Virus record (IMG/VR): IMGVR_UViG_3300032299_001203
Coordinates: 1 to 64,000 of that record
DNA length: 64,000 nt
Source of the DNA: a virus
Reading direction: 5' to 3' (one strand)
The position numbers and the translations under genes were made by a program. The notes under the pieces were generated by a model. It was given only the letters and a program-made list of their open reading frames with translations, was not told where the DNA came from and ran no database searches. How positions within the stretch are numbered: the first letter of the stretch is position 1; every line of letters starts with the position of its first letter. Positions 4,805 to 15,933 of this stretch are shown here, piece after piece.

Positions 4805-5518
4805 ATGAACCAGAGTTTTAAAACAAAAGAAGATCGAGATCGTTACCATTGGTATCAAAATGCACAAAACATGTTTTGGCAAAGTCCAATTTGGGAAGAA
4901 CAAACAAAATTTGATGAGAAGTTTAATGAAGTTTTGCTAGAAGAAATTTATAGCATTGGAAAAAATATTGTTTTGGGTGTGGACAAAGATCCACACAATA
5001 GTATATGGGACTACAGTAGACCCAATTTAAATATACTTAAACAAGAAATTATCGACATAGTAACAAAAAAAATTGCACAAAATATTCCACAACTTAGAAT
5101 GTTGAATATCCGTGGGTGTGAACATTTTATGGGTTGGGTGAACGTGCGTGAACCAGGTGAACGCCTTGAAGTACACGGACACACCGAATCGGCGATTGCA
5201 GCAACCTATTACATAAAGGCCAAAGAAGGATGTGGTGATTTGGTGGCATTTGATTCATCACACGCAATCGATTGGGAAAATAATTGTTTGAGTGGTAGTC
5301 CTTTCATGCGAGCCCGAAGATTCAAACCAGTTGAAGGTAGATTAATATTTTTTCCATCATATGTTTTACATGGAGTCGATGAAAATAAATCGGATGATTT
5401 AAGGATTTCATTGTCAACCGATTTACGAAAAGTGGTCGAAAAGGATGCATCAAATACAGTTATTTTAAAAAGTTGGGCAGGCCGAATGGCTAAAATCAAA
5501 GAGTGGAAACTTGAATAA
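4805..5518 (+). CDS. 2-oxoglutarate/Fe(II) oxygenase, TIGR02466-like
   Basis: This 237-residue protein has the double-stranded beta-helix signature of phage 2OG-Fe(II) oxygenases. A HGH-x-ES segment (H124, H126) is followed by an AATYYIKA strand and a G-GDLVAFD segment. The distal iron ligand is in FFPSYVLHGV (H189), and an Arg follows in a LRISLS strand, as expected for 2OG binding. Known relatives hydroxylate proteins or small molecules; the target here is unknown. The stop overlaps the next ATG (TAATG), so it is coupled to a second oxygenase-like gene. Confidence 0.8.
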   Translation: MNQSFKTKEDRDRYHWYQNAQNMFWQSPIWEEQTKFDEKFNEVLLEEIYSIGKNIVLGVDKDPHNSIWDYSRPNLNILKQEIIDIVTKKIAQNIPQLRMLNIRGCEHFMGWVNVREPGERLEVHGHTESAIAATYYIKAKEGCGDLVAFDSSHAIDWENNCLSGSPFMRARRFKPVEGRLIFFPSYVLHGVDENKSDDLRISLSTDLRKVVEKDASNTVILKSWAGRMAKIKEWKLE

Positions 5519-9627: not shown

Positions 9628-10290
9628 ATGTTTAATTACTGCCCACCAAAACAATTACAAGATTTACAATCAGAAACTTTTCCTGATGGTAAACGATTTT
9701 ATAAACTGCCTGATGGTACAAAATTGCCATCTGTTACCACGGTGATTGGCGCACAAAAGAAACATATTTTTCAAGCATGGCGTAACAAAGTTGGTGAAGA
9801 TGTTGCCAATGCCATTACCAAAAAAGCTACCTCTCGTGGTACAAATGTTCATACATTATGTGAACGATATCTAAACAATGAATCATTAGGTGATATTATG
9901 CCTGATGCACGAGAAATGTTTTTATCAATTAAACCGGAATTAAATCGTATCAACAACATTCACTACCAAGAACAGACACTTTGGTCAACACAATTAAACA
10001 TGGCCGGCCGTGTTGATTGTATTGCTGAATTCGATGGTATTCTTTCGGTAATTGATTTTAAAACGTCCAAAAAAATCAAGAGCCATGAAGATATTGAAGA
10101 TTACTTTTGGCAAACATCTGCCTACGCCTTGATGTATGAGGAGTTGATTGGTGAACCTATCCATGATTTGGTTATCATCATGGCCGTTGAGGATTCAAGT
10201 CCTATCGTGTTCAAACAAAAGACCGAAGACCATATCACAGGCCTAGTCAATGCCATTTCATATTATGAAAAAGGTGGTAAAATATTATGA
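9628..10290 (+). CDS. PD-(D/E)XK exonuclease, MGME1-like
   Basis: The 220-residue protein contains the layout of phage RecB/MGME1-like nucleases. SVTTVIG and an AWRNKVG helix are followed by a RGTNVHTLCERYL helix, then the catalytic core AGRVDCIAEF (Asp) and VIDFKTSKK (D-x-K), and a final WQTSAYALMYEE helix. The family degrades single-stranded DNA ends and functions in replication or recombination. It is sandwiched between the modification enzymes and overlaps the carbamoyltransferase gene by four bases, so it may simply share the transcript. Confidence 0.75.
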   Translation: MFNYCPPKQLQDLQSETFPDGKRFYKLPDGTKLPSVTTVIGAQKKHIFQAWRNKVGEDVANAITKKATSRGTNVHTLCERYLNNESLGDIMPDAREMFLSIKPELNRINNIHYQEQTLWSTQLNMAGRVDCIAEFDGILSVIDFKTSKKIKSHEDIEDYFWQTSAYALMYEELIGEPIHDLVIIMAVEDSSPIVFKQKTEDHITGLVNAISYYEKGGKIL

Positions 10291-12032
10291 AAATATTAGG
10301 GATTCACAGAGGTCACAATGGCGGTGTTTGTCTTTTAGAAGATGGTGAAGTTACTTTTCACTTGGAGCAAGAAAGACTTGACCACCATAAAAATTCAAGT
10401 GAACTACCCATAAAAATAATTCAAAAAGCAATTGAGTTAGCAAATTATGAGGTTGATGTTTTAGTTTTATCTGGTTTCACAAAACCAATTCCCGCTGACA
10501 TAAGATGTAATGAACAAATTGATTGGTATTTTGGTAATGATTCAAATAAAAAAAATAATGAACAAGTGTGGAAGGAATCTAACACACAGAACTTGTATGT
10601 TGAACTTTTAAAATTTTGGAACAAAAAACCTTTTGAATTTTATTCTTATCACAATAATCATCATGAGTTACATGCAGCTGTTGCTTTTTATAATTCGGGA
10701 TTTACTGAAGCAATTTCAGTTGTTGCTGATGGATCTGGTGCACTAGTTAGTAGTGTTCCGGGTCAATTGTATGATCAGTACAATTACGAAATTCAATCAG
10801 TATTTTATTCAACTTATCCGTCAACATTCACTTCTGTTATAAAAGAGTGTACTTATCAAAAAAATAATCCAAAAATTAATCATCGAAGTTTAGGACTAAA
10901 ATTTACTACCGCAGCAATATTTTTGGGGATGAATGGTGGTGGAGATGCCGGCAAAGTAATGGGATTAGCTTCTTATGGCAAAAAAGATAATGATGTACCA
11001 AATATCGATAATACTGTATTTGATTGGGACAAAATTTTCTTTAAAAGAATGAATGATTATGCTCTTAGTTTAAAAGATAAAAATTCTATTAAACATTGGG
11101 TTATTCCCAACGATGAAAATTTTCAAAAATATGCAAATCTTGCTTATTGGGTACAAACAGATACACAAGAGTATATGTTAAATTTAATTAAACGAGGAAT
11201 AAAAGAAATTGGAATTAAAAATGTTACAATTTCTGGCGGTTATGGATTTAATGTAGTTGCAAATTATTATATTAGAAAAAATCTACCTGACGATATAAAT
11301 TTGTATGTTGAACCCATTTCAAACGATGGCGGTATGGCCATTGCTGCAGCAAAATTATGGTGGCACCAAAACACCGGTGATAGAACAATTAGACCGTTGA
11401 AATCATTATACCTTGGTGAAAAACCAAACTATGATAACCTGGCGGGTTTATTAAATAATGATGAATCTTTAATTGATACAAACTATTCGAATATTATTGA
11501 TTTAATATTGGATAAAAACATCGTTGCCATATACCAAGGAAGATCAGAATCGGGACCAAGGGCATTAGGTAATAGGTCTATATTATTTGATCCAAGAGTG
11601 CCTAATGGAAAAGATATAGTTAATGTGGTCAAGAAAAGAGAATGGTACAGGCCTTTTGCAGGCTCTATAATGGAAGAACATGTGCACGATTGGTTTGATA
11701 TGGCTGGCCTAAAAAATTCTCCATTTATGATGTACGGAGTTGATGTATTAGAAGATAAAAAATCTCAAATACCAGCAATCACTCATGTAGACGGAACTTG
11801 CAGAATACAAACTGTTACAGAAGAACAAAATTATCATTATTATAATTTAATTAAAGAATTTTATAATAGAACTGGTGTGCCAATATTATTTGATACGAGT
11901 TTTAATTTGGCTGGCGATACAATGGTTGAAACAATAGAAGATGCACTATGGACATCAAGAAACTCTGATATTAAATATATCTATTTTGCCGATTTAGGTA
12001 AGTTGTATGTTAAAAATGGCAATATTGAATAG
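10287..12032 (+). CDS. Carbamoyltransferase, NodU/TobZ/CmcH family
   Basis: This 581-residue protein is the full length of the family. The N-terminal Kae1-like domain begins ILGIHRGHNGGVCLLEDG and has a His-rich metal site (HNNHHELHAA) and VVADGSGAL. The C-terminal domain has the diagnostic GRSESGPRALGNRS motif and the WYRPFAGS and LFDTSFN segments. Known members move a carbamoyl group from carbamoyl phosphate, via carbamoyl-AMP, to a hydroxyl group of a sugar or natural product. In this cluster a hydroxyl made by one of the oxygenases is an attractive acceptor. Carbamoylation of a modified DNA base or glycan is an alternative. Confidence 0.88.
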   Translation: MKILGIHRGHNGGVCLLEDGEVTFHLEQERLDHHKNSSELPIKIIQKAIELANYEVDVLVLSGFTKPIPADIRCNEQIDWYFGNDSNKKNNEQVWKESNTQNLYVELLKFWNKKPFEFYSYHNNHHELHAAVAFYNSGFTEAISVVADGSGALVSSVPGQLYDQYNYEIQSVFYSTYPSTFTSVIKECTYQKNNPKINHRSLGLKFTTAAIFLGMNGGGDAGKVMGLASYGKKDNDVPNIDNTVFDWDKIFFKRMNDYALSLKDKNSIKHWVIPNDENFQKYANLAYWVQTDTQEYMLNLIKRGIKEIGIKNVTISGGYGFNVVANYYIRKNLPDDINLYVEPISNDGGMAIAAAKLWWHQNTGDRTIRPLKSLYLGEKPNYDNLAGLLNNDESLIDTNYSNIIDLILDKNIVAIYQGRSESGPRALGNRSILFDPRVPNGKDIVNVVKKREWYRPFAGSIMEEHVHDWFDMAGLKNSPFMMYGVDVLEDKKSQIPAITHVDGTCRIQTVTEEQNYHYYNLIKEFYNRTGVPILFDTSFNLAGDTMVETIEDALWTSRNSDIKYIYFADLGKLYVKNGNIE

Positions 12033-12069: not shown

Positions 12070-12098
12070 TTGCCTATATAAGTATAAACACTTATAAT
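12070..12098 (+). promoter_or_regulatory. Sigma70-like promoter with an internal palindrome
   Basis: TTGCCT (12070-12075) and a perfect TATAAT (12093-12098) are 17 bases apart. A perfect inverted repeat TATAAGT-N6-ACTTATA (12077-12096) fills the spacer and overlaps the -10 box, the usual place for a repressor operator. It lies upstream of the two small genes and the tmRNA and may drive all three. Confidence 0.6.
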
Positions 12099-12122: not shown

Positions 12123-12242
12123 ATGCCAAGTAAAGATTGTGTAAGGGAAGTTAAAGTAAAAAGTTTTGCTTTTTATACCGGTGCCTGTGCTTTTGGAGTA
12201 TTGGTATTAACAGCATTGTATTTTATCAGTAAAGGTGTATAA
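12123..12242 (+). CDS. Tiny single-span membrane protein
   Basis: A 39-residue frame starts at ATG 12123 behind a purine-rich ribosome site (AAAAAGGATA). A basic N-terminus (PSKDCVREVKVKS) precedes one hydrophobic span, roughly residues 15-36, and a short SKGV tail, so it probably inserts as a single helix. A longer in-frame GTG start at 12036 would place the promoter inside the gene and has no ribosome site, so I reject it. The stop overlaps the next ATG (TAATG). Function unknown. Confidence 0.6.
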   Translation: MPSKDCVREVKVKSFAFYTGACAFGVLVLTALYFISKGV

Positions 12243-12373
12243 TGAAAGTTAAAGAGTTGGTTAAAAAGTTATATGAGGCTGAAATTAAACATGATACGCC
12301 ATTGATTAAAAAACTATGGTTTAAATTGTTAAAGAAAAGCCTTAAACATAAACATACTGAAGCTGTAAAGTAA
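12242..12373 (+). CDS. Tiny Lys-rich basic protein
   Basis: A 43-residue frame begins at ATG 12242, overlapping the preceding stop by one base, and ends at TAA 12371-12373, directly against the first base of the tmRNA acceptor piece. It contains about a third Lys residues, predicted helical and amphipathic (KVKELVKKLYEAEIKH, LIKKLWFKLLKKSL). It could bind nucleic acid or membrane; no family is recognised. Processing of a common transcript at the tmRNA 5' end would cut right behind this gene. Confidence 0.55.
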   Translation: MKVKELVKKLYEAEIKHDTPLIKKLWFKLLKKSLKHKHTEAVK

Positions 12374-12434
12374 TTCGTAGAAGTTGTTTGAAAGTTGTTG
12401 TGGACATGGGTGCGATTCCCATCACCTCCACCAA

Positions 12435-12496
12435 AAGTATATTGACGAACCGAGTTATCGGTAGCAAACACACACTATAGTTGTGGCAATATACTT
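12435..12496 (+). repeat. Intervening segment hairpin of the permuted tmRNA
   Basis: A ten-base perfect inverted repeat (AAGTATATTG at 12435-12444, CAATATACTT at 12487-12496) encloses a smaller hairpin (ACCGA-GTTA-TCGGT, 12449-12462). It lies between the CCA end of the acceptor piece and the GGGGGTG of the coding piece. It would bring the two halves together in the precursor and be removed by tRNA-type processing. Confidence 0.8.
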
Positions 12497-12608
12497 CTGA
12501 TGGGGGTGCCTAGATTCGACATGGCAATAATTAGAACAATGGAGAATCGTCAAAGCTAAAGACGTTAGGGTTGAGGATACTCGGCCGAAGAAGCAAAAAA
12601 CTATAAAC

Positions 12609-12641
12609 GCAAACGATAATAAGTATGCACTTGCTGCCTGA
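12609..12641 (+). other. tmRNA proteolysis-tag reading frame
   Basis: Ten codons starting at GCA encode ANDNKYALAA and end at TGA, with a second stop TAG directly after. With the tRNA-borne alanine the tag would be AANDNKYALAA. The ALAA end is the classic ClpXP/ClpAP degradation signal. The -4 base before the resume codon is A, as expected in tmRNAs. Confidence 0.92.
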
Positions 12642-12660
12642 TAGGTAAGCGGAGTTTCGC

Positions 12661-12724
12661 CAGGTGAACTTAGCAACAGAATCACCTGGATAAATAAAAC
12701 ACCAGTAACACACAAACCGCTGGT
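12661..12724 (+). promoter_or_regulatory. Hairpins and possible late promoter after the tmRNA tag
   Basis: CAGGTGA (12661-12667) pairs with TCACCTG (12682-12688), probably a 3' helix of the coding piece. It is followed at once by GATAAATA (12689-12696), a relaxed late-promoter match that could serve the gene at 12756, and by a weaker hairpin ACCAG/CTGGT (12701-12724). Where the tmRNA ends and the regulatory region begins is uncertain. Confidence 0.4.
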
Positions 12725-12755
12725 AATACACATAAACACACACAAGGAGAAGTAA

Positions 12756-13631: not shown

Positions 13632-13853
13632 ATGCCTAATCGTGAAGAAATAAAAAAATTTAGTTTAATGATTGAAAAATTGGTGGCAGAAAATAATTTA
13701 GGTTATATGGATGCTATCTGCCACCATTGTAAAGAAACTGGTTTAGAAATTGAAGTGGCTGCAACGTTAATCTCACCTGCACTTAAAGCAAAGATTAAAG
13801 AAGAAGCGCAAGATAACAATTTGTTGAAAAAAACATCCAGGTTGCCAATTTAA
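13632..13853 (+). CDS. 33: Late-transcription coactivator, gp33-like
   Basis: The 73-residue protein has a layout I associate with gp33 of marine T4-like phages: an N-terminal helix (FSLMIEKLV), a YMDAICHHC segment, EIEVAATLISPALKAKI, and a short C-terminal tail. The gene order 33-59-32 matches T4, which is the main support. gp33 bridges host RNA polymerase and the sliding clamp for late transcription with gp55. Late promoters elsewhere in the window agree with such a system. The protein is too small for certainty by eye. Confidence 0.6.
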   Translation: MPNREEIKKFSLMIEKLVAENNLGYMDAICHHCKETGLEIEVAATLISPALKAKIKEEAQDNNLLKKTSRLPI

Positions 13854-13859
13854 AATTTT

Positions 13860-14480
13860 ATGACTGAAAATTCAGGTTTTGCCGCATATTCCTTATGGAA
13901 TGCTTTGAAGTTACATTTTACTTCCGAATCTTATGATTATTTTAAGTATAACGGAAAAACAAATGTATCTAAACAGACATTTACCACCAACAAATCAAAA
14001 TATCAATTCTATAAACTATCTCGCAAATACGATTTGGACGAATTAAAGAATTTTTATGTTGCCAACTTTATACAAGGTAAGGGTGATTGGGTAGGCGACT
14101 TACTTCAAGATGGTGATGAGAACTATACCAAATGGCAAAAAACCCAACAGAGCTTGACATATACCTTTGAGAATGATATAATGTATATGTTTGATAGTGT
14201 TGATGGCGCTGAGTTCTGGCATATTGATGATTACTTTAAACCCATCGATGGTGGTTGGCCAATGTTAATTACCAAAATGATGCACGATAAGATTTCATTG
14301 GAAACAGTTTGTATTCTCGTTGACATATTTGGTTGTATGCCAAAATGGGAAAACCAAATTACTGAGGATATTATTTGGCCAACACACCGAAGAATTATAA
14401 AGAAATATACACCGTTTATACAATACGATAAAGAAAAGTTTACAAAGTTTTTAAAAGAAAAGATTAAAGAATATGCATAA
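13860..14480 (+). CDS. 59: Helicase loader, gp59
   Basis: The 206-residue protein is close to T4 gp59 (217 residues). The shared core is clear: YNGKTNVSKQTF, KYQFYKLSRKYDLDELKNFY and WVGDL in the N-terminal half, and ITKMMHDKISLETVCIL in the C-terminal half. gp59 loads the gp41 helicase onto gp32-covered single-stranded DNA at forks. It overlaps the next gene by eight bases and contains a perfect-consensus sigma70 promoter in its coding sequence. Confidence 0.88.
   Translation: MTENSGFAAYSLWNALKLHFTSESYDYFKYNGKTNVSKQTFTTNKSKYQFYKLSRKYDLDELKNFYVANFIQGKGDWVGDLLQDGDENYTKWQKTQQSLTYTFENDIMYMFDSVDGAEFWHIDDYFKPIDGGWPMLITKMMHDKISLETVCILVDIFGCMPKWENQITEDIIWPTHRRIIKKYTPFIQYDKEKFTKFLKEKIKEYA
14154..14182 (+). 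promoter_or_regulatory. Perfect sigma70-type promoter inside gp59
   Basis: TTGACA (14154-14159) and TATAAT (14177-14182) are separated by exactly 17 bases. It points toward the HAD gene and gp32 and would supply them independently of upstream transcription. Confidence 0.55.
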
Positions 14481-15048: not shown

Positions 15049-15933
15049 ATGAGTTTTGCAAATCTAAAACGCCAATCTGGCAACCTCGATAAACTATCTA
15101 AAGCAATTGAGGCACTCTCCCAAACATCCGAAGGTTCTGAAAAGGTCGATAATTTCTGGCGTCCAGAAGTTGACAAATCAGGCAACGGCATGGCTACAAT
15201 CCGTTTTCTTCCATCAGCTGAAAAAGATGGCGAAGATGCTTTGCCTTGGGTCAAAATCTTCTCACATGGATTTCAAGGTCCAGGTGGTTGGTTAATTGAT
15301 AACTGTTTGACTACTAAGAATCAACAATGTCCAGTATGTGAACACAATTCTACATTATGGAATTCTGGCATTGAAGCTAACAAAGATGTGGTTCGTAAAC
15401 AAAAGCGTAAACTGAATTATGTTTCAAATGTTTATATTGTATCTGATCCAAAACATCCTGAGAATGAAGGCAAGGTGTTCTTGTTCCGTTATGGTAAAAA
15501 AATCTTTGACAAGATTAGTGAAGCAATGAATCCTCAGTTTGAAGATGAACAGGCAGTCAATCCATTTGATTTATGGAAAGGTGCCAACTTTAAGTTGAAA
15601 ATTCGTAAGGTAGAAGGTTATCAGAACTACGACAAATCTGAATTTGAATCGGCAGCTCCATTATCTAGTGATGATGACGAACTCGAAACAATTTGGAAAT
15701 CACAACACTCGTTACAAGAGTTGACTAGTGATAAAGAATTTAAATCATATGATGATTTGAAGAAACGCCTTGATAAGGTTCTTGGTCTGAATGGTGAAGC
15801 ACCAAAGACAACCGTAGAACAAACCAAAGCGAAAAACTTTGATGCTAAAACCAAATCTACTGATTCACCATTCAAAGATGATACAGAAGATGATGATATG
15901 GCATATTTCAGTAAACTAGCTGAAGAAAACTAA
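15049..15933 (+). CDS. 32: Single-stranded DNA-binding protein, gp32
   Basis: The 294-residue protein matches T4 gp32 in length and layout. A basic N-terminus (residues 1-20) serves cooperativity. The OB core contains the zinc ligands H73, C86, C94 and C97, with the same H-x12-C ... C-x2-C pattern as T4, and the FWRPEVDKSGNGMATIRFLP strand. The acidic C-terminal tail (DDTEDDD) is the usual partner-binding segment. It coats single-stranded DNA in replication and recombination. A ribosome site AAAGGAAA precedes it and a terminator follows. Confidence 0.95.
   Translation: MSFANLKRQSGNLDKLSKAIEALSQTSEGSEKVDNFWRPEVDKSGNGMATIRFLPSAEKDGEDALPWVKIFSHGFQGPGGWLIDNCLTTKNQQCPVCEHNSTLWNSGIEANKDVVRKQKRKLNYVSNVYIVSDPKHPENEGKVFLFRYGKKIFDKISEAMNPQFEDEQAVNPFDLWKGANFKLKIRKVEGYQNYDKSEFESAAPLSSDDDELETIWKSQHSLQELTSDKEFKSYDDLKKRLDKVLGLNGEAPKTTVEQTKAKNFDAKTKSTDSPFKDDTEDDDMAYFSKLAEEN

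What the first reader, a model, noticed from the sequence alone, without database searches (positions are those of the whole stretch)
12374..12700. Circularly permuted, two-piece tmRNA encoded by a T4-like phage
Seen in sequence: the T-arm/acceptor/CCA half precedes the GGGGGTG/GATTCGAC half, the seven-pair acceptor stem and a long P2 form only between the two halves, and the tag frame reads ANDNKYALAA then two stops. A ten-pair hairpin closes the intervening segment. Established: permuted ssrA is known in alpha-proteobacteria, some beta-proteobacteria and some cyanobacteria, and phage tmRNA genes are known but, as far as I recall, mostly one-piece. Inference: the phage may rescue ribosomes on its own mRNAs or redirect degradation during infection.
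Basis: partly seen in the sequence, partly recalled or inferred. Interest (0 to 1): 0.93.

Follow-up and report, generated by a model that had tools for sequence, protein, structure and literature searches.

The report
Phage two-piece (permuted) tmRNA gene
A T4-like virus of bacteria carries its own intact two-piece ribosome-rescue RNA (tmRNA), a kind of phage gene already reported but shown here to be selectively maintained across a whole phage group, in a form whose removable spacer in some relatives hides small protein genes.

Summary
ARAGORN and Rfam RF04321 (tmRNA_permuted, 118 bits, cut-off 47) both call a permuted tmRNA at 12373-12700 with tag ANDNKYALAA and two stops. It sits in a 104-kb T4-like phage record, upstream of gp33, gp59 and gp32. 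At least 38 of 53 relatives with enough upstream sequence carry it in the same place, and close relatives without it have clean empty sites ending at its 3' end. The two halves covary across the permutation (P2 153 of 154 cells paired), the G3-U70 alanine pair never changes, and the spacer-closing hairpin covaries too. So it is a selected, very probably working gene. It is not a new kind: Melnitz phage has a two-piece tmRNA at the same position, and 53 such genes were already counted in phage genomes (PMC9004378). No SmpB gene was found; host SmpB would be needed. The new part lies in relatives: their spacer is a cargo slot. Four unrelated small protein families are nested in it, with dN/dS 0.08-0.47, one of them inside the published Melnitz tmRNA. 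The window's own spacer holds a conserved three-way-junction RNA instead.

The parts
12373..12433 (+). tmRNA 3' half (acceptor piece): P2 3' strands, T-arm 12406-12422, acceptor 3' strand CACCUCC 12423-12429, A73 12430, CCA 12431-12433
   Evidence: RF04321 alignment, ARAGORN, covariation
12434..12501 (+). intervening sequence (IVS) removed on maturation: 10-bp closing stem 12435-12444/12487-12496, three-way junction with conserved GACGAACC and GGTAGCAAAC, UGAU box 12498-12501 just before G1
   Evidence: fold z -2.8; register-specific covariation in relatives; alignment A1; UGAU in 25 and UAAU in 4 of 29 distinct IVS of gp59-linked relatives
12502..12689 (+). tmRNA 5' half (coding piece): acceptor 5' strand 12502-12508, GAUUCGAC, P2 5' strand 12520-12526, tag frame, 3' terminal hairpin CCAGGUGA/UCACCUGG 12660-12689 with loop containing GCAACAGAA
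   Evidence: alignment with relatives
12609..12644 (+). tag reading frame: resume codon GCA, ANDNKYALAA, stops TGA TAG
   Evidence: ARAGORN; relatives keep a tag ending mostly in ALAA
12690..12696 (+). ATAAATA, T4-type late-promoter-like site abutting the tmRNA 3' end, for the downstream gene; homology with tmRNA-less relatives resumes here
   Evidence: inference as to function
12242..12373 (+). 43-aa ORF immediately upstream whose stop codon overlaps the first base of the tmRNA match by one base
   Evidence: sequence
13632..13853 (+). gp33-like late-promoter transcriptional regulator (syntenic anchor)
   Evidence: PHROG 254, E 2e-19
13860..14480 (+). gp59 helicase loader (syntenic anchor)
   Evidence: PHROG 269, E 3e-57
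15049..15933 (+). gp32 single-strand DNA-binding protein (syntenic anchor)
   Evidence: PHROG 224, E 2.5e-110
9628..10290 (+). PHROG 298 exonuclease upstream; in Melnitz a PDDEXK nuclease likewise lies upstream of the tmRNA
   Evidence: PHROG 298, E 1.8e-73; Melnitz annotation

Best explanation
It is an intact, selected phage ssrA gene of the permuted form. One transcript, probably read through from the small genes upstream, folds so that the acceptor stem runs on almost continuously (ACCA facing UGAU) into a 10-bp hairpin that closes the spacer. Host RNase P would cut before G1 (12501/12502) and host 3'-processing enzymes after CCA (12433), leaving two RNAs held together by the acceptor stem and P2. 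Host AlaRS would charge it through G3-U70. Host SmpB and EF-Tu would bring it to ribosomes stalled on broken mRNA, translation would resume at GCA 12609, and the product would be tagged ANDNKYALAA for degradation. The likely benefit is to keep ribosomes free while phage and host nucleases create nonstop mRNA. Shown: the gene, its structure, its conservation, its synteny, the absence of SmpB in the record. Inferred: processing, charging, rescue and benefit.
For: ARAGORN tmRNA*. RF04321 118 bits. P2 pairs between the halves 153/154 cells in 22 distinct sequences, with whole-helix swaps such as UGUUGUG/CAUGGCA to UUGGUAA/UUAUCAG. Acceptor and T-stem fully paired with compensatory changes, G3-U70 invariant (also in copies found by homology alone). 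Tags vary yet mostly keep ALAA. Present near gp59 in at least 38 of 53 relatives with enough upstream sequence: 36 by signature plus L140 and L157 by ARAGORN. Same place in Melnitz. No SmpB in this record, six related contigs and the Melnitz and HTVC008M genomes.
Against: No RNA-seq, northern, charging or tagging data. The host is unknown, so its own ssrA and SmpB could not be compared. The record is 104 kb and may be a fragment, so an SmpB gene elsewhere is not excluded. Several close relatives lack the gene, so it is dispensable. The acceptor and G3-U70 counts are inflated because copies were partly selected on them; the P2 counts and the IVS-stem counts were not.
Confidence: 0.82

Rival explanations
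1. The phage tmRNA mainly acts to change proteolysis: its tag or its dose sends host proteins to proteases to recycle amino acids or remove host factors (proposed for Melnitz in PMC9004378).
For: Tags differ among close relatives (ANDNKYALAA, ANDESYALAA, ANESVYKIAA), as if tuned.
Against: Tags mostly keep the ordinary ALAA ending; nothing shows selective tagging; any functional tmRNA tags what stalls.
Confidence: 0.1
2. It is a decoy that titrates host SmpB or tmRNA, like the tRNA-domain-only RNA of mycobacteriophage DS6A.
For: A DS6A-like form inhibits tmRNA in E. coli (PMC11915505, PMC4131195); no SmpB gene was found in the phage.
Against: The tag frame, resume codon, stops and 3' domain are kept in relatives, which a decoy would not need.
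Confidence: 0.04
3. It is a passive relic of a host gene picked up by imprecise excision of a prophage.
For: ssrA is a common integration site (stated in PMC9004378).
Against: The copy is complete, in the replication/late-transcription region of a T4-like phage, in the same place in dozens of relatives, with compensatory evolution.
Confidence: 0.02
4. The locus is chiefly a spacer-cargo element: the tmRNA halves serve as processing scaffold and the excised IVS (structured RNA here, small protein genes in relatives) is the selected product.
For: IVS closing stem and UGAU box conserved while the interior is swapped; nested ORFs under purifying selection in relatives.
Against: tmRNA body and tag are themselves under selection; many phage copies have a 26-33-nt IVS without cargo.
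Confidence: 0.02

Closest known systems
Two-piece tmRNA of Methylophilales phage Melnitz (MZ577095-MZ577098; PMC9004378)
   Same: Permuted, in a T4-like phage, shortly upstream of gp33, gp59 and gp32, with an upstream nuclease gene, IVS closed by a stem and ending UGAU, no SmpB
   Different: Melnitz scores best with the alpha model (106.7 bits); the window scores 73.9 beta and 60.2 alpha. Melnitz has a glutamine riboswitch downstream and a small ORF in its IVS; the window has neither
Rfam RF04321 tmRNA_permuted (with RF01849 alpha, RF01850 beta)
   Same: Gene order, tRNA domain, acceptor, P2, tag
   Different: The Rfam seed is drawn from alpha-, beta-proteobacterial and cyanobacterial type sequences (PMC11915505); the window falls below the beta cut-off (73.9 against 84) but relative L145 passes it (94.7)
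Permuted tmRNA of Pelagibacter phage HTVC008M, Alcaligenes phage vB_Af_QDWS595 and Xanthomonas phage Rb1 (found here, not annotated in the records)
   Same: Permuted phage tmRNA; HTVC008M has it upstream of a late-promoter transcription factor too
   Different: Different tags (ANFNEYALAA, ANDNVYAAAA, ANDDNFRPALRLAA); QDWS595 is a schitovirus
One-piece phage tmRNA (Bxz1-type mycobacteriophages, Bacillus phage G)
   Same: Phage-borne ssrA
   Different: Standard order, no IVS (my knowledge; listed as phage ssrA in PMC4131195)

Membership tests
Permuted (two-piece) tmRNA, RF04321 | covariance model score over gathering cut-off | tested here: met
   118 bits, cut-off 47
Permuted (two-piece) tmRNA, RF04321 | T-arm/acceptor/CCA half before the G1/tag half | tested here: met
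Permuted (two-piece) tmRNA, RF04321 | 7-bp acceptor with G3-U70, discriminator A, CCA | tested here: met
Permuted (two-piece) tmRNA, RF04321 | P2 formed between the two halves | tested here: met
   153/154 cells paired with compensatory changes
Permuted (two-piece) tmRNA, RF04321 | tag reading frame with resume codon, hydrophobic LAA end and stop | tested here: met
   GCA...GCC TGA TAG, ANDNKYALAA**
Permuted (two-piece) tmRNA, RF04321 | mature RNA consists of two pieces | not testable with these tools
   needs RNA from infected cells
Permuted (two-piece) tmRNA, RF04321 | alanylated and bound by SmpB | not testable with these tools
   G3-U70 is present; no SmpB gene in the record
Permuted (two-piece) tmRNA, RF04321 | pseudoknots of the coding piece | not tested
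   RF04321 does not model them and I did not analyse them
beta_tmRNA RF01850 | score over gathering cut-off 84 | tested here: not met
   73.9 bits; relative L145 94.7
alpha_tmRNA RF01849 | score over gathering cut-off 50 | tested here: met
   60.2 bits, lower than its beta score of 73.9, so the subtype is left open
Melnitz-type phage tmRNA locus | syntenic position upstream of gp33-gp59-gp32 | tested here: met

The most novel reading that the evidence does not exclude
In these phages the removable spacer of the permuted tmRNA gene is a conserved cargo slot. A constant closing stem and UGAU box frame an exchangeable interior: a three-way-junction RNA in the window, other structured RNAs elsewhere, and in relatives (including the isolate Melnitz) small protein genes nested inside the tmRNA gene and under purifying selection. 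Excision during tmRNA maturation would then release the cargo RNA or mRNA.
Probability: 0.55. Interest if true: 0.75.

Novelty: new member of a known kind. Interest (0 to 1): 0.5.

Why it matters
It shows, by covariation and synteny, that two-piece phage tmRNAs are maintained functional genes and not relics, so the old question of why phages bring their own ribosome rescue becomes testable in a T4-like group where close relatives with and without the gene exist. The nested protein genes in the spacer, if expressed, would be genes inside a structural RNA gene, and one sits in a cultured phage (Melnitz).

Tried and rejected
blastn of the window tmRNA against GenBank phages: no hit. A T-arm pattern scan of bacterial genomes to find the donor or host gave only seven scattered genomes and no clear host. 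beta_tmRNA over 399 Pseudomonadota genomes: one hit over the cut-off, and other genomes below it score about as high as the window, so the beta score does not fix the lineage. Low-threshold Rfam scan of the IVS: no known motif besides tmRNA. Considered and rejected: a host-contamination contig (T4-like genes on both sides, shared synteny), a chance ARAGORN call, and integration-site debris. A hammerhead-like reading of CUGAUG next to G1 was considered by eye and dropped because the rest of the core is absent. The sigma-70 promoter hit at 12070-12098 is not above chance. ORF family C (YYTENEWS) shares frame with the T-arm, and its start is unclear.

Full report
Check of the observation. ARAGORN, run on the whole 64-kb window, returns a single gene, tmRNA* (permuted) at 12339-12732 with tag ANDNKYALAA**. 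Rfam RF04321 (tmRNA_permuted) matches 12373-12641 over its full length at 118 bits, cut-off 47; alpha_tmRNA also passes at 60.2; beta_tmRNA gives 73.9, below its cut-off of 84. The ten-pair hairpin is 12435-12444 with 12487-12496.

What surrounds it. The window is part of a 104,086-base IMG/VR virus record. Neighbouring genes are T4-like: exonuclease 9628-10290, gp33-like 13632-13853, gp59 13860-14480, gp32 15049-15933 and baseplate genes. There are no other tRNA or tmRNA genes in the window or the rest of the record and no SmpB; SmpB is also missing from six related contigs and from the complete Melnitz and HTVC008M genomes, so the RNA would have to use host SmpB.

Relatives. A scan of viral contigs for gp59 relatives gave 80 loci. 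Of the 53 with at least 2.4 kb upstream of gp59, 36 show a full permuted-tmRNA signature 1.1-3.6 kb upstream; L140 and L157, missed by that strict signature, are called by ARAGORN, making at least 38. Relatives L124, L130 and L131, with 91-97% gp59 identity, have no tmRNA, and their homology to the window resumes at 12686-12690, the tmRNA 3' end, where an ATAAATA late-promoter-like site begins. The gene is thus a discrete, dispensable cassette. The published Melnitz tmRNA lies in the same neighbourhood, upstream of gp33, gp59 and gp32, but scores best with the alpha model, so the same slot may hold tmRNAs of different type.

Evidence of function. Among 22 distinct sequences (gp59-linked copies plus isolates), the seven P2 pairs that join the two halves are kept in 153 of 154 cells, with changes on both sides including a complete helix swap in L132/L133/L135. 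This count did not use P2 to choose the copies. In a fixed-register alignment of 29 distinct copies, 96.1% of cells pair, 26 of 30 pairs change on both sides, and the covariation score is 0.633 against 0.179 in shuffles and at most 0.12 when slid. Caveat: in that set, and, copies were chosen partly on acceptor pairing, T-stem pairing, G3-U70 and at least four P2 pairs, so 100% there is inflated; copies located by homology alone (L128, L132, L135; L140 and L157 by ARAGORN) still keep them. The IVS stem was never a criterion and pairs in 90.6% of cells. Tags vary (ANDNKYALAA, ANDESYALAA, ANDEKFALAA, ANESVYKIAA) but mostly keep ALAA. Modules such as the T-arm, the segment before the tag, the tag and the IVS differ in combination between close relatives, which looks like recombination (inference).

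Spacer architecture. In gp59-linked phages the four bases before G1 are UGAU in 25 and UAAU in 4 of 29 distinct spacers. In a wider viral set UGAU occurs in 44 of 54 spacers of at least 30 nt, against 3 of 21 in the bacterial comparators, mostly alphaproteobacteria; part of the viral set came from a T-arm pattern scan. The acceptor stem can run on through ACCA/UGAU into the closing stem. The window spacer forms a three-way junction with the conserved unpaired strands GACGA and AGCAAAC, shared, with small variations, by 13 other distinct spacers, including two from tmRNAs of more distant viral contigs; no Rfam family fits.

Nested genes in relatives' spacers. Some spacers contain open frames, several with Shine-Dalgarno-like leaders. 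Four unrelated families were followed. A, MSKFY.., 56-59 aa, in three distinct tmRNA spacers, with free-standing homologues at three other loci. B, MKYK.., 50 aa, in tmRNAs with three different tags, one of them the window's relative L154, and one free-standing. C..YYTENEWS.., start unclear. D, MFKWL.., in Melnitz and many other viral contigs. dN/dS lies between 0.08 and 0.47 in all families. None matches Pfam or PHROGs convincingly. I found no mention of protein genes in permuted tmRNA spacers in the held literature, where only homing endonuclease genes in group I introns of tmRNA are described (PMC11915505). In a small bacterial control, the one spacer over 200 nt held repeats and no comparable long frame. 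The window's own spacer has no such frame.

What is known. Three tmRNA gene forms are established, with 11,946 permuted sequences and 79 phage tmRNAs in the current database (PMC11915505). Melnitz and 53 two-piece phage tmRNAs, 50 of them aquatic, are published (PMC9004378). The window gene is therefore a new member of a known kind. Its subtype and host remain open.

Mechanism. Shown by sequence: intact structure, tag frame, conservation, position. Inferred from known trans-translation biology: RNase P and 3' processing at 12502 and 12433, alanylation through G3-U70, host SmpB, tagging, and benefit by freeing ribosomes from broken mRNA during infection. Rescue is the simplest reading; altered proteolysis, decoy and relic are less likely for the reasons listed.

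Noticed in passing
L154 (L295) IVS; L296-L303; free-standing in L304: 50-aa ORF family B (MKYK..) with AAGGA-like leader nested in the spacer of permuted phage tmRNAs with three different tags; dN/dS 0.08-0.47.
   Followed up: yes
L073, L283-L288 IVS; free-standing in L289-L291: 56-59-aa ORF family A (MSKFY..) nested in permuted tmRNA spacers, with homologues outside tmRNA genes; dN/dS 0.10-0.37.
   Followed up: yes
L218 about 5104-5245 (Melnitz MZ577098) and L325-L342: ORF family D (MFKWL..) with GGAG leader starts inside the Melnitz tmRNA spacer and runs into the 5' piece; not in the GenBank annotation; 36-codon core conserved.
   Followed up: partly
L023, L025, L106, L109, L307-L324: ORF family C (..YYTENEWSRLG..) in the spacer of viral permuted tmRNAs, in frame with the T-arm, conserved as protein.
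   Followed up: partly
L280 2939-3280, L281 2953-3329, L282 2940-3368: Unannotated permuted tmRNAs in Pelagibacter phage HTVC008M, Alcaligenes phage vB_Af_QDWS595 and Xanthomonas phage Rb1.
   Followed up: partly
window 12434-12501; L045, L117: Conserved three-way-junction RNA (GACGAACC-hairpin-GGTAGCAAAC-hairpin) in spacers of different phage tmRNAs; no Rfam match.
   Followed up: partly
L124 1255-1882, L130 4176-4268, L131 4170-4262: Empty sites: close relatives without the tmRNA cassette, homology resuming at its 3' end.
   Followed up: yes
L101 511-559 (- strand): Second viral contig with a permuted tmRNA beside a glutamine riboswitch, as in Melnitz.
   Followed up: no
L346 (G085): Permuted tmRNA of a bacterial genome (alphaproteobacterial sample) with a 232-nt spacer holding duplicated palindromic repeats.
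   Followed up: no
window 10287-12032: Nol-like carbamoyltransferase gene (PHROG 1601, E 6e-146) upstream of the tmRNA; absent with the tmRNA from the empty-site relatives, and also missing between the flanking matches in several tmRNA-bearing relatives.
   Followed up: no
window, 15 ATAAATA sites: All 15 ATAAATA matches are on the + strand, several just upstream of structural genes: probably T4-type late promoters.
   Followed up: no
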